Of a DNA stretch of 64,000 bases, positions 874-46,492 are shown piece after piece. The DNA comes from Chlamydia avium 10DC88. GTDB taxonomy: Bacteria > Chlamydiota > Chlamydiia > Chlamydiales > Chlamydiaceae. The number at the start of each line of letters is the position of its first letter. Positions within the stretch are counted from its first letter, which is position 1. The DNA lies in contig NZ_CP006571.1 in NCBI RefSeq assembly GCF_000583875.1, positions 661,416-725,415 of the forward strand, in the 5' to 3' direction. Position numbers and translations under genes: made by a program. A model generated the notes under the pieces. It was not told where the DNA came from, ran no database searches, and saw only the letters and a list, made by a program, of their open reading frames with translations.

Positions 874-1209
874 GTGTGCCGTTCGACTTTACCTAAAAAT
901 TCTCGCATTCTAAAGAGGAAACAATTTATTTATGTTTCCCGATTTGGGTTATTTTGTCATGGAAGCCAGGTAGATTTTCTTGTGTCTCCATCTAGAAATT
1001 CTCGATGTTGTAAGTTGGGAATCACTGTGTCAAAGAAATTTGGCAAAGCTCATGAAAGAAATTACTTTAAACGTATTGTACGCGAAGCTTTTAGGCAACA
1101 GCGACATCAGTTGCCTGTGTGTCAAGTTGTGGTAATGCCCAAAAAAAACATATACCTAAGTTTCAAGGATTACTCCAAGACTTTATCAACTATATTCCCG
1201 ATGTTCTAA
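874..1209 (+). CDS. rnpA: RNase P protein component, C-terminus apparently frameshifted
   Basis: Protein subunit of RNase P, which helps the RNase P RNA remove 5' leaders from pre-tRNAs. The GTG-started frame (MCRSTLPKNSRILKRKQF) holds the family RNR region KFGKAHERNYFKRIVREAF at about residues 58-76. After VVVMPK at a run of eight A (1141-1148) the frame ends in an atypical SFKDYSKTLSTIFPMF. Adding one A there instead gives PKFQGLLQDF then a basic tail, stopping at 1244, which matches my memory of chlamydial RnpA C-termini. So the last 20 or so residues are probably wrong here. With the repaired frame it would overlap the convergent neighbour by 10 bp. GTG start chosen because LPKNSRILKR is the expected N-terminus. 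Confidence 0.88.
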   Translation: MCRSTLPKNSRILKRKQFIYVSRFGLFCHGSQVDFLVSPSRNSRCCKLGITVSKKFGKAHERNYFKRIVREAFRQQRHQLPVCQVVVMPKKNIYLSFKDYSKTLSTIFPMF

Positions 1210-1234
1210 AAAATAAGTTAGAAAAGAAAAGTGT

Positions 1235-2284
1235 CTATGACTGATGACGGATATAGTCTAAGGAATGAGAAATATGAGATTGAACTTCCTTAGGGGCAGT
1301 TTCGAAAGCGATTTCAGCATGTTGTAAGGCATTTTTCCACTGATCAAAGTCCAAATAGAATTGAGCAATCATCATCTCAATCCTCCATATATTTTCTTGA
1401 TCTTGCTGGCCAAACGCAGCTAAATAAGCCTCTAAAGGGGCAATTACTTTGCTAGCATCTTGACGGACACCTGCTTTAGATCTTTTCGCTAATTCTTGGA
1501 ATTCGATCAAAGCAACCGTAAAATGAGTATGTAGCTTATTCTCAGGATCTTTATTTAGCAATTTATGTTTAATTCTCTGACAATCTTCTGATTCCATCCG
1601 GCCACTTTCTACAAGTAGACGATATTTCTCTGATAGAAAAAAGTAATCATCATTACGGACGCCTAATTCTAGTGCCTTCTCCATAAAATCTCGACGTGAA
1701 ATTTCTTCCGCAAGACGGTAATATTTTTGTAGATCTTCCATGGATAATGTATGGATTATAGGACTAACGCTGTTAATGAAAAAGTCACTGTTAACTACAT
1801 GACATAGACTTTCCCCTAAATTTTCTCCTGTTTCATTTCCAAAAGATCCCATCCTATAAATTTCTCTACCATCATGAGAAATGACTAAAAGAGAGGGAAA
1901 CTCATCTACCTGAAATTTAACCTTCAATTCATTATTTTGTAGGCGTAAAGCGTTGCTTTGCTCAGAATGTCGAGGGAAATCCACTTCTAAACAAATAAAC
2001 TTACCAAGAATTTTTTGTGCAAATTCTAATGAAGTAAGAACTTCCTTACGAATTTTCATGCAAGAACCATTCCAATCAGATCCAGAGAAGAAGATCAGCA
2101 TAGGAAGTTCGGAATCCCGACTTTTCTTCACGGCTTCCTTATAATCTACATGCCAAAACAGCTGAGAAGAATTTTTATCTTGTACCGCACTTTGCAAATT
2201 CAAAGAACCTGCACCGAGTAGAAGCGTTGCGAATACCTTCAGTTGCTTAAAAGAACATTTCTTCACAATCTGCGATACGATCAT
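1235..2284 (-). CDS. thioredoxin-fold exported protein with degenerate active site
   Basis: Homolog of the chlamydial protein usually annotated thioredoxin disulfide isomerase (CT783 in C. trachomatis, from memory). 349 residues. An N-terminal hydrophobic stretch (about residues 15-30, VFATLLLGAGSLNL) suggests export. Residues about 40-160 form a thioredoxin-like domain: ELPMLIFFSGSDWNGSCMKI, then LEVDFP and EFPSLLVI with the cis-proline context. The usual WCxxC is WNGSC, so only the second cysteine remains; a dithiol oxidoreductase reaction is therefore unlikely. Residues about 170-349 are helical and resemble TPR-type repeats (YRLAEEISRR, KNALQHAEIAFETAP). SD-like GAGGG lies just upstream of the ATG. 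Role unknown; a chaperone or binding role is possible. Confidence 0.8.
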   Translation of the reverse strand: MIVSQIVKKCSFKQLKVFATLLLGAGSLNLQSAVQDKNSSQLFWHVDYKEAVKKSRDSELPMLIFFSGSDWNGSCMKIRKEVLTSLEFAQKILGKFICLEVDFPRHSEQSNALRLQNNELKVKFQVDEFPSLLVISHDGREIYRMGSFGNETGENLGESLCHVVNSDFFINSVSPIIHTLSMEDLQKYYRLAEEISRRDFMEKALELGVRNDDYFFLSEKYRLLVESGRMESEDCQRIKHKLLNKDPENKLHTHFTVALIEFQELAKRSKAGVRQDASKVIAPLEAYLAAFGQQDQENIWRIEMMIAQFYLDFDQWKNALQHAEIAFETAPKEVQSHISHSLDYIRHQS

Positions 2285-2693
2285 GGTTTCCCTCTCTTTT
2301 TCTCAGAATGCCACTCGTTTATTTAGGCACGACAAATAGCTCTCGGAGCATTCTGCCACTCGCTTCTTGTTGTATAGTCTTTTTTTTATTAAAACGAAAT
2401 AAAAAACACTACTTAAAATTTGTATCCTTGTCGCAGTAAAACCCTCTTGATCCCAACCAGATTAGCCAAGTAAAAATATTAAGAATATCGGTATTTATTT
2501 CTATGGTCTCCTACTCGTTGAGTTCTTACAAAGCTCAAAGAGTCAATAAACAACATGCTAGAAAAACCGTAGATTGTGAAACAATCTTATGTTAGCATTC
2601 TTCAAAAGTCTGATTAATTTGCTTGCTATTAAAACTTTCGTAATTTAGTGCACCTTTAAGACTTTTATCTTAGCAATATGAGAATCAACCCCA
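2285..2693. other. 409-bp divergent intergenic region
   Basis: No gene seen. It must hold the start signals of the leftward thioredoxin-fold gene and rightward cysS. A plausible cysS promoter is TTGCTT at 2619-2624, 16 bp, TAATTT at 2641-2646. Near the left end TGCCACTCG occurs twice (2309-2317 and 2354-2362) flanked by inverted CAGAATGC/GCATTCTG, within 80 bp of the leftward start. Confidence 0.5.
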
Positions 2694-4124: not shown

Positions 4125-4129
4125 CTTCC

Positions 4130-5710
<1,581 letters not shown>

Positions 5711-5875
5711 TTATATTTATCCTTCTACGCATGATTTTGATTTTAGATGTACTCCGCTCGCTGAAAAACTAGCTTCCCGAAGCAAGTAGTCTCCCAAAGA
5801 GAACAATTCTATTTCAATACGAAGTAGGATTTTCTCAAAAATAAAAAAAAGATGAATGTTTAATTACAGGAAATA

Positions 5876-5907
5876 AACTTTAGAGAGGAAAATTCCTCTC
5901 TAAAGTT
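5876..5907 (-). terminator. hairpin terminator after dsbH
   Basis: A perfect 15-bp inverted repeat (5876-5890 with 5893-5907, two-base loop) lies just past the dsbH stop. Reading leftward it is followed by TTTATTTCC, only moderately U-rich, so it may act as terminator or as an mRNA-stabilising 3' hairpin. Confidence 0.6.
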
Positions 5908-5924
5908 CTCAAGGAAAGATGTGG

Positions 5925-6419: not shown

Positions 6420-6573
6420 AATAATTTTCCCTTAAAATAATTCTCTTCGTTACTGAATGGATAGCACTGGCTATAAACATAAAATTTTCTATTTATGAAA
6501 TAAAGAACCTAGATGAATAAACTATCTGCATCTATAGTGAATTACAGATATCTTTTCTATTTTCATATCCACA

Positions 6574-12169: not shown

Positions 12170-12177
12170 AAGATGGT

Positions 12178-12948: not shown

Positions 12949-13045
12949 TTTCCTATCCCTTTGCAATAAATAGGCTTTCTAGTTAGTTTAACATAATCCT
13001 ATCTTTTGATAACATGGCTTAGTTTTACCTGTGGGGAAAATAACT

Positions 13046-14038
13046 ATGCCCTCTCATTTATTAGACTATCAAACAGTCGCAGAAGACATAATTGAGAAAA
13101 CAATTACTGAGTTACTTCGTTACCGAACTCGTTTACCTATAGTTCCTTTTTGGACAAAATCAGATGGTTCATTTGTCACTCCTGCCGATTATGGGGTGCA
13201 GTTCTGTTTACAGAAAAAACTCTGTTTAGCCTTCCCCCATATTCCCTTTATAGGTGAGGAAATCCTTGATCCTACTCATGATCAACATAAATGTTCTAAA
13301 ATCTTAGAATTTATACATGCTCTTGATCCTGAAGTTACTGATCAAGATCTCTTAGAAACACCTTTGACAGAGCAAGATCCTTCTTCTTTATACTGGCTTG
13401 TAGATCCTATTGATGGCACGGCAGGATTTATTAAAAACCGATTCTTTGCCATAGCGCTATCTTTGATTCATAATAATCAACCAATTCTTGCTGTAATGGC
13501 ATGTCCATCTCCCGATTTACATACATTTAAAATTTATTCTGCAGCTAAGAATTATGGAGCCTCCTTATTTGGTTCCGCCATACAAGGGCGGCGTTGTCTA
13601 GAGGCCGGGAAAACAATGACAGGAAAATTTTGCGAGGCTTCACTGGCCGCACGAAACCAACAACATCACTCTACAAGATTATTGAGTTTATCTCTTCCAG
13701 GTCAACCTCAGGCTTATCGTGTAGATAGCCAATATAAATATGCTATGGTCGCTGAGGGTATAGTAGATTTCTTTATTCGTTATCCCTTTGCGATCTCGCA
13801 TACACGTGCCTGGGATCATATTCCAGGGGCCTTTTTAGTAGAAGAAGCAGGAGGCGTGGTTACAGATATATTTGGTCATGCTTTGAACTCTAGAAAAGAC
13901 AATTTTACTTTAGAAAATCACCCTGTTATCTTAGCTTCAGGGAATGCACAAATACATAGCACAACCTTAGAAAAGCTACAGAAACAATATACTCACTTTC
14001 ATCAAGAAAACTCCCTGATATCTAAGCATATGTATTAA
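13046..14038 (+). CDS. cysQ: CysQ-like inositol-phosphatase family enzyme
   Basis: Mg-dependent phosphatase of the inositol monophosphatase superfamily, annotated 3'(2'),5'-bisphosphate nucleotidase. 330 residues. Metal site: IGEE at about residue 72, DPIDGTAGF, and WDHIPGAFLVEEAGG near the C-terminus. A longer GTG frame starts at 13031, but that GTG is part of GTGGGGA, a good Shine-Dalgarno eight bases before ATG 13046. Chlamydiae have no evident sulfate assimilation, so the real substrate may be PAP released by phosphopantetheinyl transfer to ACP; this is inference. Its end overlaps ldh by 17 bp on the opposite strand. Confidence 0.85.
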   Translation: MPSHLLDYQTVAEDIIEKTITELLRYRTRLPIVPFWTKSDGSFVTPADYGVQFCLQKKLCLAFPHIPFIGEEILDPTHDQHKCSKILEFIHALDPEVTDQDLLETPLTEQDPSSLYWLVDPIDGTAGFIKNRFFAIALSLIHNNQPILAVMACPSPDLHTFKIYSAAKNYGASLFGSAIQGRRCLEAGKTMTGKFCEASLAARNQQHHSTRLLSLSLPGQPQAYRVDSQYKYAMVAEGIVDFFIRYPFAISHTRAWDHIPGAFLVEEAGGVVTDIFGHALNSRKDNFTLENHPVILASGNAQIHSTTLEKLQKQYTHFHQENSLISKHMY

Positions 14039-16396: not shown

Positions 16397-17647
16397 TCAG
16401 GGTATGTACCTCGAGAATAATATCGTTGAATTATGTCCACCAAAACCAAAAGAATTTGACATAGCAACGTCAATATCCCAATCCTGGGCTTTATTTGCAA
16501 CCACATCAAAATCATCTATTTCTGCAATAGGATTCTCTAGATTAATTGTGGGGTGCAATTTCCCAGTTTGGATCGCTTGAATTGTGACTACAGCTTCAAC
16601 CCCTCCGGCTGCTCCCAAGCAATGGCCTATAAGAGATTTTGTAGAATTCATACGCAAATTCTTAATATGGCTTCCAAAAGATTTTTTCACTGCTAATACT
16701 TCAGAAATATCGCCTAGAGGCGTTGAGGTCCCATGAGCATTGATATAGTTCACTCGTTCCTTAGCTAACCCCGCCTGTTGTAAAGCTCCAAGAATACATG
16801 AAGTAATTCCTTCGCCATCATCTCTAGGTGCTGTGATATGAAAAGCATCGCAAGTAGTATAAGAGCCAAGAATTTCAGCAAATATAGGGGCATCTCGTTT
16901 TAAAGCGTTTTCTAAGGTCTCTAAAACTAAAACTCCTGCACCTTCTCCGATAACAAATCCATCACGATCTCTATCCCAAGGACGAGATGCTTCTTGAGGA
17001 GCATCATTTCTTTCAGAAAGTGCACGATTCGCAATGAATCCTGCCAAACCTACACGATTCACAGCAGCCTCGGTTCCACCGCAAACAATCATATCTGCAC
17101 GTCCAGAGACCAAATGATGATATGCAGCGTCTATGCAATAATTCGCTGTTGCACATGCTGTAGATATGGAATAATTTGGTCCCATAAGACCAAAATCCAT
17201 CGCAATGAGTGCGGGTGCCATATTGGTAATAATATAAGGAATGAAAAATGGAGAGAGTTTTTTATTTGCAAGAATCAGGCGTTCCATACCTTCATCTAAA
17301 GTCTGTAATCCACCCATGCCAGAACCAATAATCACACCGCAACGCAGAGGATCTGCTGGAAGATTCTCTTTATCCCACCGGGACATAGCGATAGCTTTTT
17401 TGGCTGCAACTACAGCATAAATAATAAAAGGATCGACTCTACGTGCTTGCTTTTTATCTAGATAGGGCTCGGGATTAAACTCTGGAACCCAGGCTGCAAA
17501 ACGGGTAGCATAATCTTCACACGGGAAGGATGTAATATTACGTACACCACTCTTCCCAGCTAATAAATTGTCGTAAAGAGTGTCTACTTCGTTCCCAAAA
17601 CAAGAAACAACACCTAAACCGGTAACTACGACACGTTTTTTACTCAT
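16397..17647 (-). CDS. fabF: 3-oxoacyl-ACP synthase II
   Basis: Condensing enzyme of type II fatty-acid elongation (malonyl-ACP plus acyl-ACP). 416 residues. Thiolase fold with the nucleophile Cys165 in [12 protein letters not shown] and the two histidines in [11 protein letters not shown] and [13 protein letters not shown]; the C-terminal NSFGFGGHN is also standard. Begins [15 protein letters not shown]. Second gene of a leftward run rsfS-fabF-Nudix with gaps of 15 and 2 bp. Confidence 0.96.
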
Positions 17648-18079: not shown

Positions 18080-18718
18080 TTAAATGATATTCCAATAATA
18101 CTTTTTAGCCATCTTTCTCAGTCTCCCTCTGGGACGCACTACAGTCTTTTCCTCTCCTAAAAGCAGAAAAGGAAGATCAACAATGCTGTCTGAAAATGTA
18201 TGGCTCCTTGCTCGGCCTATTTTCTTTAGGTAACTAAGAATCCGTGCTTTATTATCTCCGGTTAAGCATTGATTTTCAACCATTTGCCTTTCAGAAAATC
18301 CTTGAAAATAAGAAGCATACCACATATTTGCCCCTAATTTTTGGGCTATGGGTCCTACAATAAAATCAGGAGACGAGGAAAAAATCATTACCTCTCCAAG
18401 AGGATCATCCAAAGCTTCATAAAATTTTTCCATTGTTGGGGAGTAAAAATCTTTTTGACATAATTTTTTAGAAAAATCCCAAGCAACAGAAACAAGATCT
18501 GCGAAAGGAACTTTAGAAAGCAATGAAGAAACAATACGCGAATAAAAGGCAGATAAATCTAAAAATGTTGAAAAACAAAAAAAGTACAGGCAACAGGAAG
18601 GCAACGTTTTGTAAGAAAAAACACCTCGCTGTAGTGCATATCTATAAAACCCTATACTGCTTGTTCCTCTAAGCAACGTACCATCTAAATCAAAAGCATA
18701 TATACAAGATTGTCTCAT
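18080..18718 (-). CDS. HAD-superfamily phosphatase (subfamily IB-like)
   Basis: 212 residues. Motif I is AFDLDGTLLRG with the nucleophile Asp near residue 10, motif II is MIFSSSPDF, and motif IV lies in HTFSDSIVDLPFLL. The helical cap between residues about 25 and 105 suits subclass IB (phosphoserine-phosphatase or 1-acyl-glycerol-like HAD), though the substrate is not predictable. Its ATG overlaps the stop of the upstream coiled-coil gene in ATGA, so the two are translationally coupled. Confidence 0.82.
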   Translation of the reverse strand: MRQSCIYAFDLDGTLLRGTSSIGFYRYALQRGVFSYKTLPSCCLYFFCFSTFLDLSAFYSRIVSSLLSKVPFADLVSVAWDFSKKLCQKDFYSPTMEKFYEALDDPLGEVMIFSSSPDFIVGPIAQKLGANMWYASYFQGFSERQMVENQCLTGDNKARILSYLKKIGRARSHTFSDSIVDLPFLLLGEEKTVVRPRGRLRKMAKKYYWNII

Positions 18719-20342
18719 GAGGATAGTTGCTGAATTTTCTGCTTCAATTCCAAAATTGCTTCATCAAGCTCCTCTAAGGCACGTTTATCTTGTTCAACTA
18801 ATTCACTGTACTGCATAGCACAATCAAAATCCAACCCAGAGGATCCCAACAATTTTTTATCTTGCTCTAATTTATATTTCAGTTCCTTACGACGTTCTTG
18901 CCTTTGAGCTAATATCTGTCGCATATTAGCAAGTTTTTCATCAGAGCCCGAAGTTGACAATAACTGCTCTTCTAAAAAGGAGATGATATGTTGTAAAACA
19001 ATGTTTAACTGATTTTCCAAAGGAAATTTTTCTGAAGCAGTTAAAAAATTTGCTTTATTCAACATATTTTTGAGCTCTTTCCATTCTGAATGAGATTCGC
19101 TAGTCACATTTCCAGAAAAACATTTCTTCGAAAATGCTTCAATTTTTTCTGTTAACTCTTTAATAGCCTCTTGTTGGATCTGTTTATTTCGAATAGCTTG
19201 TTCTTGTAAGCGCTTGTCTTCTATTTCTTGTTTTTCTTTTATCTTATCAAATAGATCCTGCAGCTCAGCTTTCAAAGCAACGACATCTTCATGAGTTAAA
19301 TCCAAAGATCGCATGCGTTTAGAGACCATATCCAACTCCTTACGCAACTTAGATAAATCTCGACCTTCCTCTAAAAATTGAACTAACTGCGACAATTGTT
19401 CACGTATTTCTTTAGAGTTCTCTATAGAAGCAGTCTTCAATCGGCTCTGCTCCTGACGAATTTCTTTCTCTAAACCTTTTAATTGATCCCAACACTTACT
19501 TAAGTGCAGACGCGTAGAGGAAAATACCTCAGAAGAAATAGCTAAATACTTAGCAGCTTGTTGAAGGTTTTTTATTTCCTTCCTTAAAAAAAAACAACAC
19601 GCTTCAGTGGGTTTCTATTATTATTTGAGAAATATTTAGCAATAAAAGACTCAACATCTTTAGCAAATGCTACACTCACTTGTTCAATAAGCTCTTTTCT
19701 CTTTGGGAATACCTGATTACCTAAAGAAGATAGGCGCTTAAAAAACTTACTCTTCAAGCGCATGCGCATGCCTACGTTCATCAACTCTTTACGTAAATCA
19801 ATGATCCTTGTGGAAAAATTGTTTAACCAAACAAGTGCAAAATGTGATTCTCTGTAGAATTCTCTTTGTTTTTCTAAAGTCTGTATCTCTAAAAAATCTG
19901 GTAGCTCTTCTTGTTGCGCAGAAGCAGAATTCCCGCTGAAAAAGTTCAGAATATCCTGATCTAAGCAAGATATTGCCAACTCAATCTGTCCAACAACAAA
20001 AGATCCTTCTTCATCTTGCAAAGATTTAACATGACGACCTTCTTTAGTTAAATCAATGTATCGATTCCAAAAATCTGCACGCTTGCTCACATTTTCGACC
20101 TGTTGAAACAAGGGGAGACAGTGTTTGCGTATACTCCAAAATAGCCTAAGATTCATACGCTCCTCTAGAGCCTTCTCCATTTGTTCCAAACTAAAAGCTA
20201 TCTGATCTTCTATCGATGAAATCTGAGACAAATTTTGAGTAAATGCAGTAAAGGAACTCTCTACAGAGGGATTCTCATTAGAAACTACTAGAGAACCTTG
20301 TTCTTTTTCCGGGGAATGAAAGCTGCCGTCTGAAATATCCAT
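18715..20342 (-). pseudogene. coiled-coil protein gene split by a frameshift
   Basis: Two leftward frames, 20342-19584 (252 residues) and 19440-18715 (241 residues), together match one chlamydial coiled-coil protein of about 540-560 residues (CT768 in C. trachomatis, from memory). The first stops at TAA inside a run of nine T (reverse strand; A run 19586-19594). Adding one T gives RKEIKNLQQAAKYLA and then an uninterrupted frame through the spacer into the second ORF, making about 542 residues. The protein is highly charged with heptad-like Glu/Lys helices, no signal peptide and no known domain. Function unknown. Either the assembly missed one base or the gene is broken or slippage-expressed. 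Confidence 0.75.
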
Positions 20343-20428: not shown

Positions 20429-21487
20429 ATGTGTGCTTTCCCTAGAATCTCTTTTAATGAAGGACTGGAGCTATTTAGAAAAAGTCCCTTAAAAGACCTC
20501 CAAGAGATCGCGAACTCTATACGCAAACAACGCTATCCTGATGATAGAGTAACTTATGTTTTAGATGCCAATCCTAATTATACAAATATTTGTAAAATTG
20601 ATTGTTCATTTTGTGCCTTCTATCGTAAGCCTCACTCCCCTGATGCCTATCTTCTTTCTTTTCAAGAATTTTCTTCTTTGTTGCATCGCTATGTAGGGTT
20701 AGGTGTGAAAACAGTTCTCCTCCAAGGAGGAGTTCATCCAAAGATTGGTATTGATTACCTTGAGGAACTTGTAAAAATTACCGTTCGGGATTTCCCTCAA
20801 ATCCATCCTCATTTTTTCTCAGCTGTAGAGATTTCTCACGCTGCTCGTGTATCAGGAATTAGCGACGAAGAGGCTTTAATTCGACTTTGGGATGCGGGGC
20901 AAAGGACAATTCCTGGGGGTGGTGCTGAGATTCTTTCTGAAAAAGTCCGCAAAGTTATATCTCCTAAAAAAATGGGACCTAATGGATGGATACAATTCCA
21001 TAAGTTAGCTCATCATTTAGGGTTCCGCACTACAGCAACAATGATGTTCGGTCATATAGAGACTGCTGAAGACATCTTAATACATCTGGATACTTTAAGA
21101 CAGGCTCAAGATGAGAACCCAGGATTTTATAGCTTCATCCCCTGGAGTTATAAGCCAGGGAATACAGCTTTAGGGCGTAAAATCTCGCACTTTGCTCCAC
21201 CTGAAATGTATTATCGTATTCTTGCGTTATCACGTATTTTCTTAGATAATTTTGATCATATAGCTGCCTCTTGGTTTGGTGAAGGCAAAGAAAATGGAGT
21301 TCGTGGTCTACACTATGGGGCAGATGATTTTGGTGGAACGATTATTGATGAAAGTGTGCACAAATGCACAGGATGGACAATTCAAAGCTCAGAAAAAGAG
21401 ATACGAGAGCTTATCACTTCAGAAGGATTTATCCCCATGGAAAGAAACACATTTTATACTACTCTTTCTCATCCATGTAAAAAGTAA
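20429..21487 (+). CDS. mqnC: cyclic dehypoxanthinylfutalosine synthase, radical SAM
   Basis: Radical S-adenosylmethionine enzyme of the futalosine route to menaquinone, which chlamydiae are thought to use. 352 residues. The [4Fe-4S] cysteines are Cys55, Cys59 and Cys62 in NICKIDCSFCAF. LLQGGVHPKIGIDYLEEL, RTIPGGGAEILS and MFGHIETAEDIL follow, as in MqnC/CofH proteins. The other futalosine genes are not in this window. Divergent from the coiled-coil gene; the 3' end overlaps miaA by 19 bp on the opposite strand. MqnE, the sister family, is less likely given the length and the DFGGTIIDE motif. Confidence 0.87.
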   Translation: MCAFPRISFNEGLELFRKSPLKDLQEIANSIRKQRYPDDRVTYVLDANPNYTNICKIDCSFCAFYRKPHSPDAYLLSFQEFSSLLHRYVGLGVKTVLLQGGVHPKIGIDYLEELVKITVRDFPQIHPHFFSAVEISHAARVSGISDEEALIRLWDAGQRTIPGGGAEILSEKVRKVISPKKMGPNGWIQFHKLAHHLGFRTTATMMFGHIETAEDILIHLDTLRQAQDENPGFYSFIPWSYKPGNTALGRKISHFAPPEMYYRILALSRIFLDNFDHIAASWFGEGKENGVRGLHYGADDFGGTIIDESVHKCTGWTIQSSEKEIRELITSEGFIPMERNTFYTTLSHPCKK

Positions 21488-22911: not shown

Positions 22912-23699
22912 ATGGCAAGGAGTTATATAAAAATCTTATTTTCCCCAGGACCGAAATATTCTTTTTCTTACTCTGTATTATGTATATTTCTTAGTATTCT
23001 CATTTTTATTCCTCCTCTCCATTGGTTTTTATTTCCTGAAGCCTATACATTCTTTTCAAAAAAAACCTTCCTATTAAAAATATCTTTTTAGTTTCTTCTT
23101 CTCCCTGTAAACTTCCTGTGATTCTTTTCTCGGAAATCCTGGGGTTATCGGCAGATCATCCGACATTTTTACATCAATTTTCTGTTAAGCATGCGGAAAC
23201 TACTTTAAATAATATTGGTATCTTTACTTCGCTTTCTGTACAAAAGGTTCCTGATAATAAGGGAATTCTTATTTTCTATGATCTACACACTCCCTTGGGT
23301 TACTTGGGGAACAAAACAAACACATTAATTAATTCCTCGGGGCATCGGTTTCCATCACAACCTTTTTTTAAATCTTTAAATCTTCCTAAAATATTTTTTT
23401 CTCAACAAGATATAGAAGAACCTTCATTACCTTCATGGAAGATTGCTATTGCAGAACTCCTGATTAAAGAACTTCATTTGGATCCTCCTGAGATCATTGA
23501 CATGTCCTGTACAGACATCTACCCCATGGAAATAGTAGTAACCTTACGTTCAGGTCACCTACTTAGGTTTCACTACCATGCTCTCCAATTAGGATTAGAA
23601 AATTATCACCGTATGCAAGTTAGTATGGGAATAGAAGAAAAATCTCGCTATATTTATGATTTGAGATTCCCTCACTGTGTGTTGTTTAGTAAGTTATGA
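22912..23699 (+). pseudogene. membrane-anchored chlamydial protein, split by a frameshift
   Basis: The upstream frame from ATG 22912 encodes 59 residues: MARSYIKILFSPGPK, a transmembrane helix around residues 21-43, then stops at 23089-23091. The downstream frame, open from before GTG 23118 to 23699 (193 residues from that GTG), encodes LPVILFSEILGLSADHP onward. Adding one A to the run of eight at 23058-23065 joins them without a stop into about 262 residues, which agrees in layout with C. trachomatis CT764 as I remember it. Bitopic inner-membrane topology with a large extracytoplasmic or cytoplasmic domain; no known family. The stop overlaps cutA in ATGA. Confidence 0.7.
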
Positions 23700-24022: not shown

Positions 24023-24123
24023 CACTACATACTAGTCTTGCTATTATTTTCTAATTTAGTACAATTTCTCTAGAATTTTAAAGACGAATCAACATTATTT
24101 CTTATCTTATTAGTTTGGATCTT

Positions 24124-24537
24124 ATGGAAGAATTTGTAGCATATATCGTGAAAAATTTAGTTGCTAATCCTGAAGCTGTAGAAATTCGCTCTATACAGGA
24201 TGAAACTGGCGAGTCCATTAAATTAGAAGTCCGTGTTTCTCCTGATGATATTGGGAAAATCATAGGTAGAAGAGGAAGCACCATACATGCTTTAAGGACA
24301 ATTCTTAGACGTGTATGCTCTAGATTAAAAAAGAAAGTACAAATTGACTTAGTTCAGCCCGAGGGGACTAAACTACCTTCTGACGAAACTGAAGAAGATT
24401 GCTGTGATTTTAACGATTTAGATATGGAGAGTCAATGTTGTCATGAAAGCGGCAGCTGCTGCTCATCTCATCAAGAAGAGGAACCTCAAGACATGTCTTC
24501 TGTTCACCATGAGTGTTCGTATCATGGCCATGGGTGA
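24124..24537 (+). CDS. KH-domain RNA-binding protein (KhpA-like) with Cys/His-rich tail
   Basis: 137 residues from ATG 24124 (a TTG three codons upstream is possible). Residues 1-80 are a KhpA-type single KH domain: MEEFVAYIVKNLVANPEAVE at the start and the GRRG loop at 48-51 in IGKIIGRRGSTIHALR. Residues 91-137 are an unusual acidic extension with seven cysteines, three times as CC pairs (93-94, 105-106, 112-113), and six histidines, ending HGHG. The tail could bind metal or respond to redox; that is inference. Followed by a strong terminator. Confidence 0.85.
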   Translation: MEEFVAYIVKNLVANPEAVEIRSIQDETGESIKLEVRVSPDDIGKIIGRRGSTIHALRTILRRVCSRLKKKVQIDLVQPEGTKLPSDETEEDCCDFNDLDMESQCCHESGSCCSSHQEEEPQDMSSVHHECSYHGHG

Positions 24538-24569: not shown

Positions 24570-24608
24570 AGCTAAAACTTCCTTCGAGGAGGAGGTTTTA
24601 GCTTTTTT
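24570..24608. terminator. bidirectional terminator overlapping the murC-ddl stop
   Basis: Stem AGCTAAAACTTCCT at 24570-24583 pairs with 24590-24603 (13 Watson-Crick pairs and one wobble, six-base loop) and is followed by five T at 24604-24608. It ends the KH gene. The murC-ddl stop codon (24598-24600) lies inside the 3' arm, so the same hairpin closes the leftward mur operon. Confidence 0.85.
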
Positions 24609-27036
24609 GTGATACTGTTTTGATTAGTTCTATATTATTTATTGAGATTGAGTGTTTACGTTCAAAATGATGTAATCCCGAAATAATTATTTCATGAATT
24701 ATTTGTTCAGCACTCCATCCCAAATGTAGAAAATTATGTAAAAAAGGACTTGCTTTAGTCATTCCTGGGATAGGATTAACTTCAGAAAGCCAAAAGTTCC
24801 CTTCATTATCTAAAAAGAAATCTATCCTACAAGAACCTTGGCCTCGCAGCACACGGTATACTCGTTCAGCAAATTCTTTAACCGTGCTCTTTTCTTTTGA
24901 AGAAAGATCAGGATTATAGTTTATTTTTACATCGACTTTGTCATTTAAACCATATTTGGTCTCATAATCAATGAATTGTTGTGATCCACGTTCATGGGGA
25001 TCTGCCATATAATAACAACTGTCTGCATTGCCTATACAAGACACCTCAATTTCTCTAGATCCCAAACGACTCTCTTCGATGAACACATCTGTATCATATA
25101 AAAAAGCTTCAGAAATTTTCTCTTGTAATTCTTGTTCATTGTGGACTTCAAAAATTCCTATACTTGATCCTAAATGGGCTGTTTTTACAAACATGGGGAA
25201 AGAGAAAGCTATTAAAATATTTCGCAGACATAATTCGGGAGATCTTTTCCAAGCTCTCAGGGTTAATGCTTGATAAGGAACTACAGGGACGCCTACCGAA
25301 GCTGCAAGAAGTTTCGTAATAATTTTATCCATGCCTATGGATGCACTGAGTAGAGAAGGTCCTCCATAAGGTTTCCCGATCATGTCTAAAAATCCTTGGA
25401 GAGTTCCATCCTCTCCAAAAGGGCCGTGTAAAATAGGGAAAAGACAATCCATATCGTCAAGAGAATTAGCAATCTCCGCAGATAGAATAGGGAAGAACTC
25501 ATCTTCCCCATCATGTATTTCATTGTCAAGATGAGGCACTTTTTTCCATAGTCCCTTGCGATTAATGACGAAATAATTCACATCATAATACTCAGGAGAA
25601 AAATAAGAAGCGGCATTCTTAGCAGATAGTAAAGAAATATCACGCTCGCAAGATTTTCCTCCGCATATAATGCCTATAGAAAGCTTCTTGGGTTCGAAAT
25701 TTCTTAAAGCATTGCCTACGGCACAAATATTTCCTGCTCCTAATGATACACAGACATCATGAACACGAATGTTCTGCTTCAAATAACTAGTAATGTGATC
25801 ATAAGGAATATACTGACACCGTACAAAGGATAATTTAGAAAGTGTAGTGGCTATCTCTTTCAAATCTGGTAATGTTATAGGTGTTTCCCCAGCGCTATAT
25901 ACATCGGTAAGTATCACTTCATCAACATCTCGAAACGCAACATAAAAATCGTCCAAACAAGCATGAAATCGTGAAAATCTGTGAGGTTGAAATAAAGCAA
26001 TAATACGTCGCAATCCTACAGCATCACGAACTCCTTGCAATGTACAAGAGACTTCCCGAGGGTGGTGAGCATAGTCTTCAAGAAATAGGAATCTCTCTGA
26101 AAGATTTTTTCTCTCTAAACGCCTTTGGATCCCTGAGAAATTCTTCAATCCAGTACGTATACTATCCTCATCTATACCAAATGTTAATGCTACACCCATA
26201 GCAACTGCTGCGTTGGTTATGTTGTGCTTCCCTACAAGCTGCACATCTATATCTCGGTATTCTTTACCTAAAAATTTTATCGAGAACGTTGATCGCCATC
26301 CCTGCTGACTATAGGAAGAAATATAGAGGTCATACTCATCAGAAAATCCATAGGAAACTCCTTGGATTTTTCGTTCATATAATTCTGAGCAATCACCACA
26401 GTAAAAACAATAGCGGGGATCTTGTACCTTTCTAGCGAATGCCTCTAGAGAACTTACTAACTGAGTTCTATCGTTTTCGAAATTATTTAAATGCTCATTA
26501 TCGATGTTAGTAATTACAACAGCTGTGGGAGAATAATTTCGTAAAGACCCATCACTTTCATCAGCCTCTGCTATGAAATATTTCGTACGGCCTGAATATC
26601 CATTCAATGATTCTGTATTTAGCCCTCCAATAGCGTAGGAAGGGTCTTGATTTGCTTCTTGGAAAATTGCAGTAATTAATGAGGATACTGTTGTTTTCCC
26701 ATGGCTCCCTGAAACAAGAATACTTGTATAATTTTCCATTAATTGTGCTAATAATAAAGAACGGTGGAGCACAGGAAGTCCTCGGAACTTTGCCTCTTGA
26801 TATTCTACATTATCTTCTGTGATTCCTGAACTATAGATTACATAACCATTTTCTGGGACATGGTGCTTACTGTGTCCTAGGAAACATGACGCCCCTTTAG
26901 CATTTAAAGAATCTATGATCTCATTCTTGGATAAATCACTTCCAGAAACACTATGTCCTCTATCTAACAAAATATGTGCCAATGCACTCATTCCTATTCC
27001 ACCGATACCAATGAAATGGTAATGGACTTTACTCAT
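24598..27036 (-). CDS. murC/ddl: MurC-Ddl fusion: UDP-MurNAc L-alanine ligase / D-Ala-D-Ala ligase
   Basis: Bifunctional cytoplasmic enzyme, a chlamydial hallmark. 812 residues. Residues 1 to about 450 are MurC: FIGIGGIGMSALAHILLDRG, the ATP site SGSHGKTTVSSLI, and EDYAHHPREV. From about 455 on is Ddl, an ATP-grasp ligase: IGIICGGKSCERDISLLSA, HGPFGEDGTLQGFLDMIG, GSREIEVSCIG and the metal ligands in FWLSEVNPIPGMTKASP. It adds the first amino acid of the stem peptide and makes the terminal dipeptide. Last gene of the operon, 9 bp after murG; its stop lies within the terminator hairpin. Confidence 0.96.
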   Translation of the reverse strand: MSKVHYHFIGIGGIGMSALAHILLDRGHSVSGSDLSKNEIIDSLNAKGASCFLGHSKHHVPENGYVIYSSGITEDNVEYQEAKFRGLPVLHRSLLLAQLMENYTSILVSGSHGKTTVSSLITAIFQEANQDPSYAIGGLNTESLNGYSGRTKYFIAEADESDGSLRNYSPTAVVITNIDNEHLNNFENDRTQLVSSLEAFARKVQDPRYCFYCGDCSELYERKIQGVSYGFSDEYDLYISSYSQQGWRSTFSIKFLGKEYRDIDVQLVGKHNITNAAVAMGVALTFGIDEDSIRTGLKNFSGIQRRLERKNLSERFLFLEDYAHHPREVSCTLQGVRDAVGLRRIIALFQPHRFSRFHACLDDFYVAFRDVDEVILTDVYSAGETPITLPDLKEIATTLSKLSFVRCQYIPYDHITSYLKQNIRVHDVCVSLGAGNICAVGNALRNFEPKKLSIGIICGGKSCERDISLLSAKNAASYFSPEYYDVNYFVINRKGLWKKVPHLDNEIHDGEDEFFPILSAEIANSLDDMDCLFPILHGPFGEDGTLQGFLDMIGKPYGGPSLLSASIGMDKIITKLLAASVGVPVVPYQALTLRAWKRSPELCLRNILIAFSFPMFVKTAHLGSSIGIFEVHNEQELQEKISEAFLYDTDVFIEESRLGSREIEVSCIGNADSCYYMADPHERGSQQFIDYETKYGLNDKVDVKINYNPDLSSKEKSTVKEFAERVYRVLRGQGSCRIDFFLDNEGNFWLSEVNPIPGMTKASPFLHNFLHLGWSAEQIIHEIIISGLHHFERKHSISINNIELIKTVSQKS

Positions 27037-31162: not shown

Positions 31163-31198
31163 ATTATTTTCCTAAAATAGCGGCAGCTATCCCTAATA

Positions 31199-32212
31199 TC
31201 ATACAAAAAAACCAGCTATCCAAAAATTCCTTACGACTATTTTTTCTTCTACTCCTTGATATTCATAATGATGATGCAAAGGAGAACAAAAGAAAATACG
31301 TTTTTTTCTCAAACGCCAACTCATCACCTGCAAAATCACGGACCCTGCTTCAGCAACAAAGACTCCCCCACATAAAATCAAAAAAAGCTCTGCACGCAAC
31401 ATGACAGCACAACTACCTAATATTCCCCCGATTAAAAGAGACCCTGTATCTCCCATAAAAACTTTTGCAGGAGGGAGGTTATATTTTAAAAAGGCGAGAC
31501 AGACTCCTATTAAAGCTGTGAGGATCACAGCAATGTTGATAGCCAGAGGTGTCGTGATATGAAGAATAGCAATAACTAGGCAGCTTAATGCAGCCATGCT
31601 TACAGTGCCTGAAGCTAAGCCATCTAGTCCATCCGTGAGATTTACGGCATTACTTGTTCCTACGATAGCGAGAATAGCTAGGATGAAACATAAAAATTTC
31701 TCTAAAAAAGAACTGCCCAAAGATACCGTGCCATAAAAAGGTACATTTAATGTGTAGAACTTACTGGGTTCATCATAAGTATACAAAACTATGACTACAG
31801 TAACAGCAGCGATAAGAAATTGTATTATGAATTTTTGTTGTACTGTGATTCCATGACCTTTTTTCTTTCTTTTCTTCACTATATCATCATACCATCCTAA
31901 GCCTCCCCAACTTACAATCAGAAATAAGGAAAGCCATGTAATCGGATTACGTAAAGGCAGCCATAAAATAACTGCTGTGAGTAGAACAATAATAAAAAGT
32001 ATCCCCCCTGCTGTGGGTGTGGAAGCCTTATCACAATGAAGTGCTTCTAGTTTCTCACAGTGGGCTTTTTGTAATTGATTATAATGGTTTTGACGTCTAA
32101 GCCAATGAATTACGGGATGTCCTAAAATCCATCCTTGAGCCAAAGCAACACAAAAAACTAAGGTTAAAAATAAATACGGAGCATCATGAAAACATGAAAA
32201 CATAAAATTCAT
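31199..32212 (-). CDS. mraY: MraY, phospho-MurNAc-pentapeptide translocase, C-terminus apparently frameshifted
   Basis: Integral membrane enzyme that makes lipid I from UDP-MurNAc-pentapeptide and undecaprenyl phosphate. Motifs: DKASTPTAGGILFI, WGGLGWYDDIVKKR (catalytic Asp pair), NAVNLTDGLDGLASG, FMGDTGSLLIGG and SPLHHHYE. The frame stops early after WIAGFFV. Adding one T (run of seven at 31205-31211, A on the plus strand) gives WIAGFFCMILGIAAAILGK and a stop at 31164, a normal final helix, and places the end one base from murD. I use ATG 32212; a TTG at 32230 or ATG 32203 is possible. If the shift is real, the last helix is lost. Confidence 0.9.
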   Translation of the reverse strand: MNFMFSCFHDAPYLFLTLVFCVALAQGWILGHPVIHWLRRQNHYNQLQKAHCEKLEALHCDKASTPTAGGILFIIVLLTAVILWLPLRNPITWLSLFLIVSWGGLGWYDDIVKKRKKKGHGITVQQKFIIQFLIAAVTVVIVLYTYDEPSKFYTLNVPFYGTVSLGSSFLEKFLCFILAILAIVGTSNAVNLTDGLDGLASGTVSMAALSCLVIAILHITTPLAINIAVILTALIGVCLAFLKYNLPPAKVFMGDTGSLLIGGILGSCAVMLRAELFLILCGGVFVAEAGSVILQVMSWRLRKKRIFFCSPLHHHYEYQGVEEKIVVRNFWIAGFFV

Positions 32213-32230
32213 AACATTCTGACAATACAA

Positions 32231-40415: not shown

Positions 40416-40650
40416 TTTCCAGACCTAAATGCGCTATGTAAAGAAACAAAGTCAAGATTATAGCATCTAATACCAAAAAAGCAAGTTACGCAATTTATAT
40501 GAATACCCGAACTCAGTAGCCAACACACTAAAGACTATTTCTCAACACATAGTTAAAAAATAGCATTAAAAAGACAGACTAGAGACTAAAATGAACAACT
40601 CCCATATAATTGCAATCAACCTAATACTTTTGACACTAAAGTTCCATCCT

Positions 40651-43281
40651 ATGTTAAGTAATACTTTGCGATCTAACTTCTTAAAGTTCTATGCTAATCG
40701 GAATCATACTATTGTTCCTTCATCTCCTGTCTTTCCTCATAATGACCCATCAATCCTCTTTACTAATGCAGGAATGAATCAATTTAAGAATGTCTTTTTA
40801 AACAAAGAAAAAACAAGCTACTCTCGAGCGACAACCTCACAAAAATGCATCCGTGCGGGGGGAAAGCACAATGACCTAAATAATGTAGGTCATACTTCAC
40901 GTCATCTCACGTTCTTTGAAATGCTAGGGAACTTTTCTTTCGGTGATTACTTTAAATCTCAAGCTATTGCTTTTGCCTGGGAAGTATCTCTTTCTGTTTT
41001 CAACTTTAACCCTCAACAAATTTATGCCACTGTGCATGAAAAAGATGATGAGGCTTTTGCTCTTTGGGAAGAGTTCTTGCCTTCTAATCGCATTTTTCGC
41101 TTAACAGACAAAGATAATTTCTGGAGCATGGCAGATGTCGGCCCCTGTGGATATTGTTCTGAACTCTTATTTGATAGAGGAGAGAAATTTAGCAAAGCAT
41201 CTTCACCTCTAGAAGATGTCGAGGGTGAACGCTTTTTAGAGTACTGGAATCTTGTTTTTATGGAGTTTAACCGTGCTGCAGACGGTTCTCTTCTCTCGCT
41301 CCCCAATAAACATGTAGATACAGGAGCAGGTTTAGAACGTTTAGTTGCGATTATTTCAGGTACGGATACTATTTTCGAGGCAGATGTTTTACACCTACTT
41401 ATCAAACAGACAGAACAATTATCAAGGAAAACATATCAACCACACCATCCTTTAGGTGCTGCTTTCAGAGTAATTGCTGATCATACGCGCTCCCTATCTT
41501 TTGCTATTGCTGATGGTTTGCTTCCTGGAAACACAGAACGCGGTTATGTATTAAGAAAAATTCTACGTAGAGCAGTCAACTATGGGAAACGTCTAGGACT
41601 TACCCAACCATTTTTAGCAGATATTGTTCCTTCTTTAGTTGATGCAATGGGAGATGCCTATCCTGAACTTCGACTTTCTTTATCTCAAATTCAAGAAGTC
41701 GTGACTGCAGAAGAAGAAAATTACCTAAGATCGCTTAATCGCGGAGGAAGTTTACTCCATCAGGTGATAAAAACATCCTCTTCTGTAATCTCTGGGCAAG
41801 ATGCTTTTAAATTAAAAGATACTTATGGTCTTCCCATTGATGAAATAGCTTTATTAGCAAAAGACCATAATCTCTCTGTAGATCTGGAGACTTTCGATCA
41901 ATTAGAAAAAGAAGCTAAAGAACGTTCTAAGAAAAACGCAGCGAAAACTCGCAACTTAACAGATAAAGACGAAGCTTTTTATGATACGTTATCTCTAAAA
42001 GAAAACTCTGAGTTCTTAGGATACACTACGCTATCTTGCGATACATTTATTGAAGCACTCCTGCATGATAGTCAACAAGTCCCCACTCTGAAAGAAAAAC
42101 AAAAAGGTGTCATAGTCTTAAAATCAACTCCTTTCTATGCAGAGAAAGGTGGGCAAGTTGGGGATTCTGGAGAGATTTTCTGTTCAGAAGGGACATTCTT
42201 AGTAACTCATACCACATCTCCAAAGCCAGGGATTATCTTACATCACGGAGAGGTAACACAGGGGTACCTCTCTCAAGGTTCAGCTATAACAGCACAAGTA
42301 CACTGTATCCGAAGAACAAATATTAGCAATAACCATACAGGATGCCACCTTTTGCACAAGGCTTTAGAGATGACTTTAGGCGATCATATTCGCCAAGCTG
42401 GATCTTACGTTGATGATACAAAAATACGTCTAGATTTTACTCATCCCAAGGCCATATCTCCCGATGATTTAACAGCGATAGAGCTGCTAGTAAATGAAAA
42501 AATTCGAGAAAATCATCGCGTTGAAATCCGCGAAGCTCTGTACTCTGATGTTATGAGTTCTAAAGAGATCAAACAATTCTTTGGAGACAAATATGGTGAT
42601 ATTGTACGAGTAGTTTCTGCTGGATTTTCCCATGAGTTATGTGGAGGGACCCATGCTGAGCATACAGGAGACCTTGGATACTTTCGTATTATTAAAGAAC
42701 ACGCTGTTGCTACAGGAATTCGTCGTATAGAAGCTGTCACGGGGAAAGAAGCTGAGCTCTTAGCACATCGAGATCATGAAGACCTCAATGAAATCTCTTT
42801 GGTTTTACAGTCTCCTCGTGATCAAATTGTGCACAAGTTACAAAATGTATTAGAAGAGAAAAAACTCCAAAGCAAACAGATCACTGAATTAGAAACTCAG
42901 TTAGTCAATGTACAATTAGATAAAATCATTGAGAAACGTCAACATATTGATGACATTTCTTATATAGTACACCACCTAGATGAATCAGAAAGTCATCGCC
43001 TACAACAATATGCAAATTGTTTTCACCAAAGAATCCCTAATCGCTGTATTTCTTTATGGATTACTCGAAAACAGGGCAAGCATATTCTTTTTTCTAGGCT
43101 CTCTAATGACCTTGTCCAACAAGGATTACAAGCAAAAAATCTTTTAGAACAATTACTCGCACCTTGTGGGGGGCGCTGGGGAGGACGAGACACATTTGCT
43201 CAGGGTAGCACAGATATTCTCCCACAAACAGACACAGTAAACACAGTTTTATGGCAATGGATTTCAACACAGCTAACTTAG
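40651..43281 (+). CDS. alaS: alanyl-tRNA synthetase
   Basis: Class II synthetase charging tRNA-Ala, with editing. 876 residues from ATG 40651; a frame open 20 codons further upstream begins with a non-conserved hydrophobic stretch, and family members start [17 protein letters not shown]. Catalytic core [15 protein letters not shown] motif ([12 protein letters not shown]), [11 protein letters not shown]; editing domain [13 protein letters not shown] and the metal site [12 protein letters not shown]-Ala domain with [13 protein letters not shown]. The 3' end overlaps mfd by 31 bp. Confidence 0.96.
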
Positions 43282-46200
43282 CCTCACCTCTTTTTTCTAA
43301 ACTAGCTCATGCCTCTACTCCACTATTAATAGAAAATATCCACTCAGGGGCACGTGCATTTTTAGCGGCTCAATTTTTTTATAAAAAAAATACTTCTGTT
43401 GTCATGGTGACAACATGTTCTCGACTAGATGATCTTTTTGAAGATCTTTCTGCGTTTTTAGAAATCCCTCCCTTAGAGTTCCCATCATCAGAAATCGATC
43501 TGTCTCCTGAACTAGTTAATATTGATGCTGTAGGCAAGCGTGATAAAATACTTTATGAACTTTGTAAACAAAATAAGCCTGTATTTTGTGTTACTACATT
43601 AAAAGCATTACTAGAAAAAACACGTTCTCCTAAAGATCTGATGAACCAATGCCTAGATATTCAAGTAGGAGATCTCCTAGACCCAGATATGATGATAGAC
43701 TTATGTAAAAATTTAGGCTATCGCCATACGACTCTTACTAGTGATAAAGGAGAGTTTGCTTATCGTGGTGGAATTGTTGATATTTTTCCCTTATCCTCTC
43801 CCGAACCTTTTCGAATAGAATTCTGGGGAGAAAAAATTATTTCCATACGTCCCTTTAACCCTTCAGATCAACTATCTACAGGGAAAACTTCTAAACTCTC
43901 CATATCTCCAGCGATACAAAATTCTGGGGAGTCCTTGGAGTACAGCCTTTTGGATTATTTTCCCTCTCCTCCTGCATTTGTTTTCGACAGTTTAACAAAT
44001 CTAGAAGATGATTTTGCTGAAATTTCGGGGACGCTCTCCTCACTGCCTAAACGTTTTTTACCAATTAAGGAATTTTGTGAACGTGCTTTTCTATCTCCTA
44101 CAATTTTCTTTGAGGAAAAAACCTTCCCCAATGCTCAAATTAAAAAAAATCAAGAAGTTCACGTAGAAGTTTTCCATTGCCATATTGCAACATCACGTGT
44201 TGCAGCTCCCTTTATCTATCCTAATGAAATTTTTGCTGGTGAAGGAAATCCTCTTTTAGACTTCTTACAGAAACTACATGAGTATACTCCTAATTCAGAA
44301 TTTCCGTTCCACATAGCGATCTATAATACCAATACAAAATCTCTAAAAGAAGCTCGTGTACTTATAGAAACCCTCCAACATCACAATTGGAAGATTTACG
44401 AAAAACGTAATAACCTGTCATCAAGCTTTGCTCTTGTAGAAGAGCATTTTGTTGCTATCTCGCTATCCGAATTTGCATCGACAAAAATCTTACGAAGACA
44501 AAAACAACGAAATTATTCTTCTGTGGCTACTGAAGAAGTCTTTGTCCCAGTCCCGGGGGAAACTGTTGTGCATCTTCACAATGGTATTGGGAAGTTCATC
44601 GGGATAGAAAAAAACCTAACCATTTAAATATTGAAACAGACTATCTTGTGATTGAATATGCGGATCGTGCAAGACTTTATGTACCTTCTGATCAGGCTTA
44701 TTTAATTTCTCGTTATGTAGGGGCTTCTGAAAAAACTCCCGAGTTACACAATCTTAACGGCTCTAAATGGAAAAGATCTCGCGATCTGTCTGAAAAGTCT
44801 CTTATTCTTTATGCCGAAAAACTTCTTCAACTTGAAGCTCAACGTTCGACATCAGCGGCATTTACCTACCCTCCTCATGGAGAAGAAGTCATAAAATTTG
44901 AAGAAAGCTTCCCCTACGAAGAAACTCCTGATCAATTAAAAGCTATTGAACAAATTTACAGTGACATGATGTCGGATAAACTTATGGATCGCCTCATTTG
45001 TGGTGATGCTGGATTTGGAAAGACCGAAGTTATCATGCGTGCTGCTGTAAAAACTGTTTGTGACGGTCATCGTCAAGTGATTGTCATGGTCCCAACAACA
45101 ATTCTAGCAACCCAACATTACGAAACATTCACCCAACGCATGGCAGGGCTGCCTATAAATATCGCAGTCCTATCTCGCTTTTCAGACAACAAGACAACAA
45201 AAAAAATATTTGAAGGCGTGTCTAATGGAGATATTGATATCCTCATTGGCACACATAAACTTATCAACAAGAATTTGGAATTTAAAAATCCTGGCTTGCT
45301 TGTCATTGATGAAGAACAACGGTTTGGTGTTAAAGTAAAAGACTTTTTAAAAGAGCGCTATCCTACCGTAAATTGTCTCACTGTATCTGCAACACCTATT
45401 CCCAGAACTCTATACATGTCATTATCAGGAGCCCGTGATCTTTCTCTTATCACTATGCCTCCCTTGGATAGACTTCCTGTTAGCACATTCGTTTTAGAAT
45501 ATAGTGATGAAACGTTAACGGCTGCTTTACGCCATGAGCTACTCCGTGGTGGGCAAGCCTATGTAATCCATAATCGGATAGAAAGTATTTTTAGATTAGC
45601 AAACACCATTCGCTCGTTAATTCCTGAAGCACGTATTGCTGTTGCCCATGGCCAAATGTCGTCAGAAGAACTCGCTGTTATTTTTCAGAAATTCAAAGAT
45701 CAACAAATCAATATTCTTGTAGCTACTGCATTAATTGAAAACGGGATCGATATTCCCAATGCCAATACTATTCTAGTTGACCAAGCAGATAAATTTGGTA
45801 TGGCTGACTTATATCAAATGAAAGGACGTGTAGGAAGATGGAACCGAAAAGCTTATTGTTACTTTTTAGTATCACATTTAGACAGGCTATCTAGCCCTGC
45901 TGCTAAGCGCTTGGAAGCCCTCAATAAACAAGAATATGGGGGAGGGATGAAAATCGCTCTACATGATTTGGAAATTCGAGGAGCGGGGAACATCTTGGGA
46001 ACCGATCAATCGGGGCACATTAGCGCTATAGGATTCAATTTATATTGTAAATTATTAAAAAAGGCCGTAGCTGCATTAAAAAACAACTCATCCCCACTAT
46101 TATTTAACGATGATGTAAAAATTGAATTCCCCTATAACTCTCGTATTCCTGATACCTATATAGAGTTAGCATCGATGCGTATAGAGTTCTATCAAAAAAT

Positions 46201-46492
46201 AGGCAATGCGGAAAATGTAGAACAATTATCTTGTATACAAGAAGAGATGCGCGATCGCTTCGGCCCTCTTCCTGACGAAGTTTTATGGTTGTTTGCCTTA
46301 GCAAAAATACGTATATTCTCTCTTGAACGAAATATTACTAGTATCAAAGGGACCTCAAACGCCTTATATATCCAACAGTACCAAGAAAAAACAGAAAAAA
46401 TTAAAAAGGTATTACCCTATTCCCTATCACCTACTCCGGAATTATTAGTATCAGAAGTTTTAGAATCTTTAGAGAAAGCATTCCCCACATAA
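43251..46492 (+). pseudogene. mfd: transcription-repair coupling factor Mfd, split by a frameshift
   Basis: Moves stalled RNA polymerase and recruits UvrA. The first frame (43251-44627, 458 residues) has the UvrB-like part (YRGGIVDIFPLSSPEPFRIE) and reaches VHLHNGIGKFIGIEK, then stops. The second (to 46492, 614 residues from ATG 44648) starts IEYADRARLYVPSDQAY and holds the translocase: GDAGFGKTEV, DEEQRFG, TATPIPRTL-type SATPIPRTLYMSL, ATALIENGIDIPNA. Adding one A to the seven at 44608-44614 gives EKKPNHLNIETDYLVIEYAD, the usual CarD-like sequence, and a normal protein of about 1080 residues. So an indel in the RNAP-interacting domain splits an otherwise intact gene. Confidence 0.88.

What the first reader, a model, noticed from the sequence alone, without database searches (positions are those of the whole stretch)
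874..46492. Five genes each broken by one missing A:T in a homopolymer
rnpA (A8, 1141-1148), the coiled-coil gene (A9, 19586-19594), the membrane-anchored gene (A8, 23058-23065), mraY (A7, 31205-31211) and mfd (A7, 44608-44614) all lose frame at an A or T run, on both strands, and one added A:T restores a family-typical protein in every case. The uniform sign (always one base short) points first to homopolymer under-calling in the assembly. Against a blanket error, an A10 in ftsK (63013-63022) and an A8 near 43383-43392 in mfd are in frame. Poly(A) slippage rescuing genes is known in AT-rich endosymbionts, but A7 runs are short for it.
Basis: partly seen in the sequence, partly recalled or inferred. 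Interest (0 to 1): 0.75.

Follow-up and report, generated by a model that had tools for sequence, protein, structure and literature searches.

The report
Frame breaks; one conserved slippery run
Five genes in this bird Chlamydia sequence are broken at runs of A or T, most likely because the sequencing lost a base in each run, but one of the five runs lies at a site that 14 related species keep letter for letter, as if the cell uses it.

Summary
The five breaks are real in the printed sequence. They are the only internal frame breaks that I found among 47 genes. All lie in A/T runs of 7 or more (5 of 43 such coding runs) and all have one sign. The window is most likely Chlamydia avium: a C. avium MraY from another record matches the window's 5' piece 333 of 333 and its 3' piece 13 of 13, so an intact copy exists in the species. 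All five genes are open in 18 of 18 Chlamydia genomes searched. Homopolymer under-calling is the best account of the set.

One run is special. In the coiled-coil gene the homologous site is exactly G-T10-A in 14 of 18 relatives, one whole clade, with no codon change where about 14 are expected: the only case among 1318 comparable codon tetrads in 46 genes. The 12-mer occurs 31 times in 18 genomes, 14 of them here. This fits a maintained slippage site, though nothing here shows slippage. No C. avium protein of this gene was found, so its break may be real.

The parts
874..1235 (+). rnpA, frame broken at the A8 run 1141-1148; first frame 874-1209
   Evidence: RNase P protein by Pfam and NCBIfam; 18 of 18 relatives open
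18715..20342 (-). coiled-coil gene, about 550 codons in relatives; pieces 19584-20342 and 18715-19440
   Evidence: C. gallinacea protein matches in two frames meeting at the run; 18 of 18 relatives open
19586..19594 (-). the run in the coiled-coil gene (T on the coding strand); homologous site is G-T10-A in 14 of 18 relatives, with no codon change in those 14
22912..23699 (+). membrane-anchored gene of unknown function, broken at the A8 run 23058-23065; downstream piece 23118-23699
   Evidence: 18 of 18 relatives open
31163..32230 (-). mraY, broken at the A7 run 31205-31211, 13 residues before the end of the intact C. avium copy
   Evidence: P0001 333 of 333 identical 5', 13 of 13 identical 3'; 18 of 18 relatives open
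43251..46498 (+). mfd, broken at the A7 run 44608-44614; pieces 43251-44627 and 44648-46492
   Evidence: 18 of 18 relatives open; A run of 7 or 8 at this site in 13 of 18 relatives
63013..63022 (+). A10 in ftsK, in frame (control)
   Evidence: open frame 62449-64000

Best explanation
The window is from a Chlamydia avium assembly in which long A/T runs are sometimes read one base short. At least mraY, and most likely also mfd, rnpA and the membrane gene, are whole in the organism; the breaks are sequencing or assembly errors. The coiled-coil gene is a separate case: its run lies at a site that the rest of its clade keeps as exactly ten T. There the break is either the same kind of error at the most error-prone run, or a real C. 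avium allele of a maintained slippery run. Shown: the breaks, their confinement to long A/T runs, intact relatives, the intact C. avium MraY, the conserved T10. Inferred: the error itself (no reads were seen) and any use of the T10.
For: Breaks only in A/T runs of 7 or more, none in C. gallinacea. Intact C. avium MraY identical on both sides of the break. All five genes open in 18 of 18 genus genomes searched. Seven pieces are under ordinary constraint: dN/dS against C. gallinacea 0.049 (rnpA), 0.110 and 0.074 (coil), 0.067 (membrane, downstream piece only), 0.101 (mraY), 0.106 and 0.017 (mfd), against a median of 0.095 in 42 intact genes (dS is near 1, so the ratios are rough). Conserved coding resumes at the run, not at a new start codon (coil, mfd).
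Against: No reads and no other C. avium DNA could be seen. The platform behind the window is unknown. The sign alone is weak (five of five, two-sided p 0.06). For the coil gene no C. avium protein was found, although the C. avium MraY cluster counts 4 members on 3 contigs, the longest 1,041,101 bases. A strain difference could also explain mraY.
Confidence: 0.75

Rival explanations
1. (Not exclusive of the best explanation for the other four genes.) The coiled-coil break is real in C. avium and lies at a transcriptional slippage site that its clade maintains: RNA polymerase slips on the ten-T run, so each cell makes some full-length protein and some cut at about half length. A C. avium template of another length would still give some full-length product by slippage.
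For: G-T10-A in 14 of 14 species of one clade, 0 codon changes against 13.7 expected, first of 1318 tetrads. The conserved block is just the 12 bases; flanking codons vary. 14 of 31 genus-wide copies of the 12-mer are here and in 7 genomes it is the only copy; the pattern read backwards occurs 9 times in the same 18 genomes. No C. avium protein of this gene found. Both slipped frames stop within 22 codons in 14 of 14. The run codes residues 260-263, at the start of a predicted helix.
Against: No RNA or protein evidence. Stops come quickly in most wrong frames. Neighbouring codons are correlated in conservation, so a naive probability is too small. Four relatives and 16 of 16 loci outside the genus lack the run, so the gene can do without it.
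Confidence: 0.3
2. The coiled-coil run is a phase-variation switch: replication slippage turns the gene on and off, and C. avium was sequenced in the off state.
For: Homopolymer switches are reported or proposed in Chlamydia (PMC6740158, PMC4514472, passages). The run is long and maintained.
Against: All 14 relatives show the same length, in frame. No protein cut at the run was seen among the 3 hits, though clustering and pseudogene rules may hide such forms. The variable tracts in the passages I saw are poly-G or poly-C in genes and a poly-A in a promoter.
Confidence: 0.12
3. The coiled-coil run is a -1 ribosomal frameshift site: its end reads U UUU UUA in frame, a classical slippery heptamer (recalled).
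For: The final TTA is kept in 14 of 14.
Against: No consensus stem downstream in 14 species, although single sequences fold somewhat better than shuffles (mean z -1.6, mononucleotide shuffles). The GTT before the heptamer is kept too, in a residue whose codon seldom stays fixed (3 of 206 other Val columns), which favours run length over heptamer.
Confidence: 0.08
4. All five are real indels in C. avium, as pseudogenes or as frames rescued by polymerase slippage, as in some insect endosymbionts.
For: A/T runs and uniform sign fit. The downstream coil piece has 16 C. avium-only against 10 C. gallinacea-only residue changes (p 0.065) and the membrane piece 11 against 7 (p 0.125).
Against: Intact C. 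avium MraY. Two of the runs are only 7 long. rnpA and mraY are essential in bacteria generally (recalled). mfd downstream piece 97% identical to C. gallinacea, with 3 against 9 lineage changes.
Confidence: 0.07

Closest known systems
Homopolymer under-calling in assemblies
   Same: One sign, long A/T runs only, conserved genes
   Different: Not provable here without reads; the coil run lies at a conserved site
Transcriptional slippage in Thermus thermophilus dnaX (described in PMC1088944, passages)
   Same: A run of nine or more identical bases inside a coding gene, two product lengths possible
   Different: T run not A run, other gene, slippage not measured
Frameshifted poly(A) genes of Blochmannia (PMC3017870, passages)
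   Same: Obligate intracellular bacterium, single frameshift in an A/T tract, otherwise normal gene
   Different: There tracts reach 12 bp and 8 genes are hit in B. vafer; here runs are 7-9, and one gene has an intact copy in the species
Homopolymer phase variation in Chlamydia (PmpG poly-G, cytotoxin poly-G, lpxC promoter poly-A; PMC6740158 and PMC4514472, passages)
   Same: Chlamydia, homopolymer in or near a gene
   Different: Here poly-T, same length in 14 species, no on/off mixture seen

Membership tests
Homopolymer under-call | Breaks confined to long homopolymers | tested here: met
   5 of 5 in A/T runs of 7 or more
Homopolymer under-call | One sign in all cases | tested here: met
   Same shift in all five; weak on its own
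Homopolymer under-call | Intact copy in the same species | tested here: inconclusive
   Met for mraY; rnpA, mfd and membrane gene not looked up; coil none found
Homopolymer under-call | Raw reads show other run lengths | not testable with these tools
   No reads held
Programmed transcriptional slippage (coil gene) | Homopolymer long enough to slip (about nine A/T) | tested here: met
   Ten T in 14 of 18 relatives; threshold from PMC1088944 abstract as shown
Programmed transcriptional slippage (coil gene) | Run length conserved beyond what the protein needs | tested here: met
   Only codon-perfect tetrad of 1318; 0 changes against 13.7 expected
Programmed transcriptional slippage (coil gene) | mRNA with mixed run lengths and two products | not testable with these tools
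   No RNA or protein data
Phase variation (coil gene) | Run length differs between isolates | tested here: inconclusive
   One length in 14 species, one genome each; isolates within a species not available
-1 ribosomal frameshift (coil gene) | Conserved stimulatory structure downstream | tested here: not met
   No consensus stem in 14 species; pseudoknots not tested
Intrinsic terminator (coil gene) | Hairpin just before the T run | tested here: not met
   No consensus stem upstream
Endosymbiont-type poly(A) rescue of all five | Tracts of nine or more | tested here: not met
   Four of the five runs are 7 or 8

The most novel reading that the evidence does not exclude
It works as a transcriptional slippage site that gives every cell a mix of the full protein and its N-terminal half. 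C. avium carries a real length variant of this run and depends on slippage for any full-length product. I know of no slippage-recoded gene described in Chlamydia.
Probability: 0.25. Interest if true: 0.7.

Novelty: new member of a known kind. Interest (0 to 1): 0.45.

Why it matters
For the window, it warns that rnpA, mraY and mfd must not be called lost in C. avium on this record. For the field, the ten-T run is a precise, cheap-to-test candidate for recoding or switching in Chlamydia. A search for papers holding both 'Chlamydia' and 'transcriptional slippage' gave 7, in none of which Chlamydia occurs more than twice (listing). One of them, PMC3711429 (passages), counts 1720 predicted frame transitions in 15 Chlamydiae genomes; whether this gene is among them I could not see. 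If RNA reads vary at the run, two protein forms would follow from one gene.

Tried and rejected
Split genes with re-initiation: rejected for coil and mfd, since conserved coding resumes at the run, ahead of the next start codon. Conserved frameshift in all five: rejected, 18 of 18 relatives are open in one frame. Terminator or frameshift-stimulating stem at the T10: no consensus stem. Whole-window count of single-base gaps against C. gallinacea as a test of under-calling: too noisy to use; at runs of 5 or more the window was shorter 3 times and longer 2 times in genes, 4 and 4 between genes, 1 and 0 in rRNA. Known fold for the coil protein: no PDB match at E 0.001 or better. Coil family: none in Pfam; in NCBIfam one weak hit far below its cut-off. 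P0127 as a C. avium copy of the coil gene: rejected, 73% and 77% identical to the window pieces. P0121, same length as the broken piece: it ends elsewhere with another tail. Platform of C. avium 10DC88: not found in the searches and passages seen; PV 4360/2 was Illumina (PMC7163028, whole text).
Full report
What the window is. The MraY piece of the window (31199-32230) finds a protein named from Chlamydia avium, P0001, with 333 of 333 aligned residues identical. I take the window to be C. avium on this. The nearest genome that I could fetch, G006, has a contig of 1,059,583 bases, the length given for C. gallinacea 08-1274/3 in the abstract of PMC4956461. It is collinear with nearly the whole window at about 80-98% identity. 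No genome is held for the window itself. C. psittaci, of the same genus, is on control lists (recalled), so I put no base back and searched the pieces apart.

The observation. C. gallinacea ORFs compared with the window show frame breaks in the coiled-coil, membrane and mfd genes as two matches in different frames. A closer look adds mraY near its end and, by its 3' piece, rnpA. Other flags are weak paralogue matches and one short antisense frame. Of 47 genes counted, five are broken. Coding A/T runs of 7 or more number 43; 5 are broken. Of 388 coding A/T runs of 5 or 6, none was found broken. Two genes, 13031-14038 and 24598-27036, diverge in their last residues. In the reverse comparison C. 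gallinacea shows no such break; its assembly is from Illumina reads (PMC4956461, passages).

Are the genes dead? dN/dS against C. gallinacea is ordinary for the seven pieces tested: 0.017 to 0.110, against a median of 0.095 (range 0.014-0.279) in 42 intact genes (dS near 1, so rough; the upstream membrane piece was not tested). Residue changes on the C. avium branch are not in excess in mfd (14 against 21 upstream, 3 against 9 downstream), mraY (15 against 13) or the upstream coil piece (19 against 22). The downstream coil piece (16 against 10, p 0.065) and the membrane piece (11 against 7, p 0.125) lean upward without significance; rnpA was not in this test. In mfd and the coil gene conserved coding resumes at the run, not at the next start codon.

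Intact copies. All five genes are open through the site in 18 of 18 genomes of the genus searched (mfd; rnpA; coil; membrane; mraY; sites looked at one by one). For mraY there is a C. avium copy: P0001 is identical to the window's 5' piece and, read alone, the window's 3' piece gives the last 13 residues of P0001. Its cluster has 4 members on 3 contigs, the longest 1,041,101 bases. This is the strongest single evidence for error, though a strain difference is not excluded.

The coiled-coil gene is different. Its upstream piece had 3 hits among 375 candidates of about 139-441 residues, none close to identical. The full C. gallinacea protein found 78 proteins of about 304-966 residues (which scored only the 7993 candidates sharing most words); most have no name, none is named C. 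avium, and by identity to C. gallinacea only P0127 (78%) lies where C. avium should. It is 73% and 77% identical to the two window pieces, so another species. A gene that NCBI marks as pseudogene has no protein record (recalled), so the absence fits a break in other C. avium assemblies too, but does not prove it. The downstream piece alone was not searched in the protein database.

At the homologous site, 14 of 18 relatives carry exactly ten T between G and A (codons GTT TTT TTT TTA); the other four (G008, G014, G016, G017) have a longest A/T run of 5 to 7 in that stretch. On a tree from 11,567 protein columns those four fall on one side and the 14 on the other (I rooted it between them, in line with the first split, trachomatis group against the rest, told in PMC7694038). 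One search found the gene in 89 of 105 genomes of the order and gave loci for the best 30; the 16 of these outside the genus have no A/T run above 6 at the aligned place.

Is this more than the protein requires? A first look at five genes gave 1 codon-perfect tetrad of 235. In 46 genes fetched from the same region of the 18 genomes (some genes found in only 13-17 genomes), 5694 columns are residue-invariant in the 14 species, Met and Trp left out; 248 of these are codon-invariant. Among 1318 tetrads of such columns one is codon-perfect, and it is this one. Outside the site, 3 of 206 Val, 42 of 409 Phe and 8 of 817 Leu columns are codon-invariant. Independence would give 0.004 perfect tetrads, but neighbours are correlated (24 perfect pairs against 5.7 expected, 4 perfect triplets against 0.14), so I rely on the rank and not on that figure. 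On the tree, 0 changes are seen where 13.7 are expected; the next two tetrads have 1 change each and lie near gene ends. Of 287 places with an A/T run of 7 or more in some species, this one holds the longest run kept at one length in most species (T10 in 14 of 18). Other runs recur too: A8 in 13 species in gene 52988-53338, A7-A8 in 14 species in gene 20429-21487, A7-A8 in 13 species at the mfd site itself. Across whole genomes the 12-mer GTTTTTTTTTTA occurs 31 times in 18 genomes, against 9 for the pattern read backwards; 14 of the 31 are this site, and in 7 genomes it is the only copy.

What it may do. The conserved block is the 12 bases and little more; there is no consensus stem before it (against a terminator) or after it (against a stimulated ribosomal frameshift), though single downstream stretches fold a little better than shuffles (mean z -1.6). 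One base fewer in the message gives a stop at once in 8 of 14 species and after 14 codons in 6; one base more gives a stop after 1 to 22 codons. Either way the product would end at about residue 260-290 of about 552. In the model of the C. gallinacea protein (mean pLDDT 85.9, pTM 0.55) the run codes residues 260-263, at the start of helix 260-276, after the long helix 204-248 and a short one. No PDB entry matches at E 0.001 or better. I think slippage by RNA polymerase is the likeliest use, since the length of the run is kept and PMC1088944 (passages) names conserved run length as a mark of purposeful slippage. Phase switching and a UUUUUUA ribosomal site are weaker rivals. None is shown.

Verdict.

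Noticed in passing
window 18080-18718 (HAD-like gene just downstream of the coil gene): In 9 of the 14 relatives in which this gene was found, a T run of 9 to 11 stands at one site, in frame, with differing lengths.
   Followed up: no
window 44608-44614 (mfd): The broken mfd run is itself a recurrent A-run site: A8 in 12 and A7 in 1 of 18 relatives.
   Followed up: partly
P0125: A C. gallinacea-like coil protein of 523 residues lacks 29 residues around the T10 site, between two AKY stretches; a real deletion or an assembly collapse.
   Followed up: no
window 16397-17647 and 24115-24537: Near the 3' end of the first and the start of the second, codons are unusually conserved in 14 species; perhaps overlap with signals of neighbouring genes.
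   Followed up: no
window 24598-27036 and 13031-14038: The last 11-15 residues differ from C. gallinacea; read as ordinary end divergence.
   Followed up: partly
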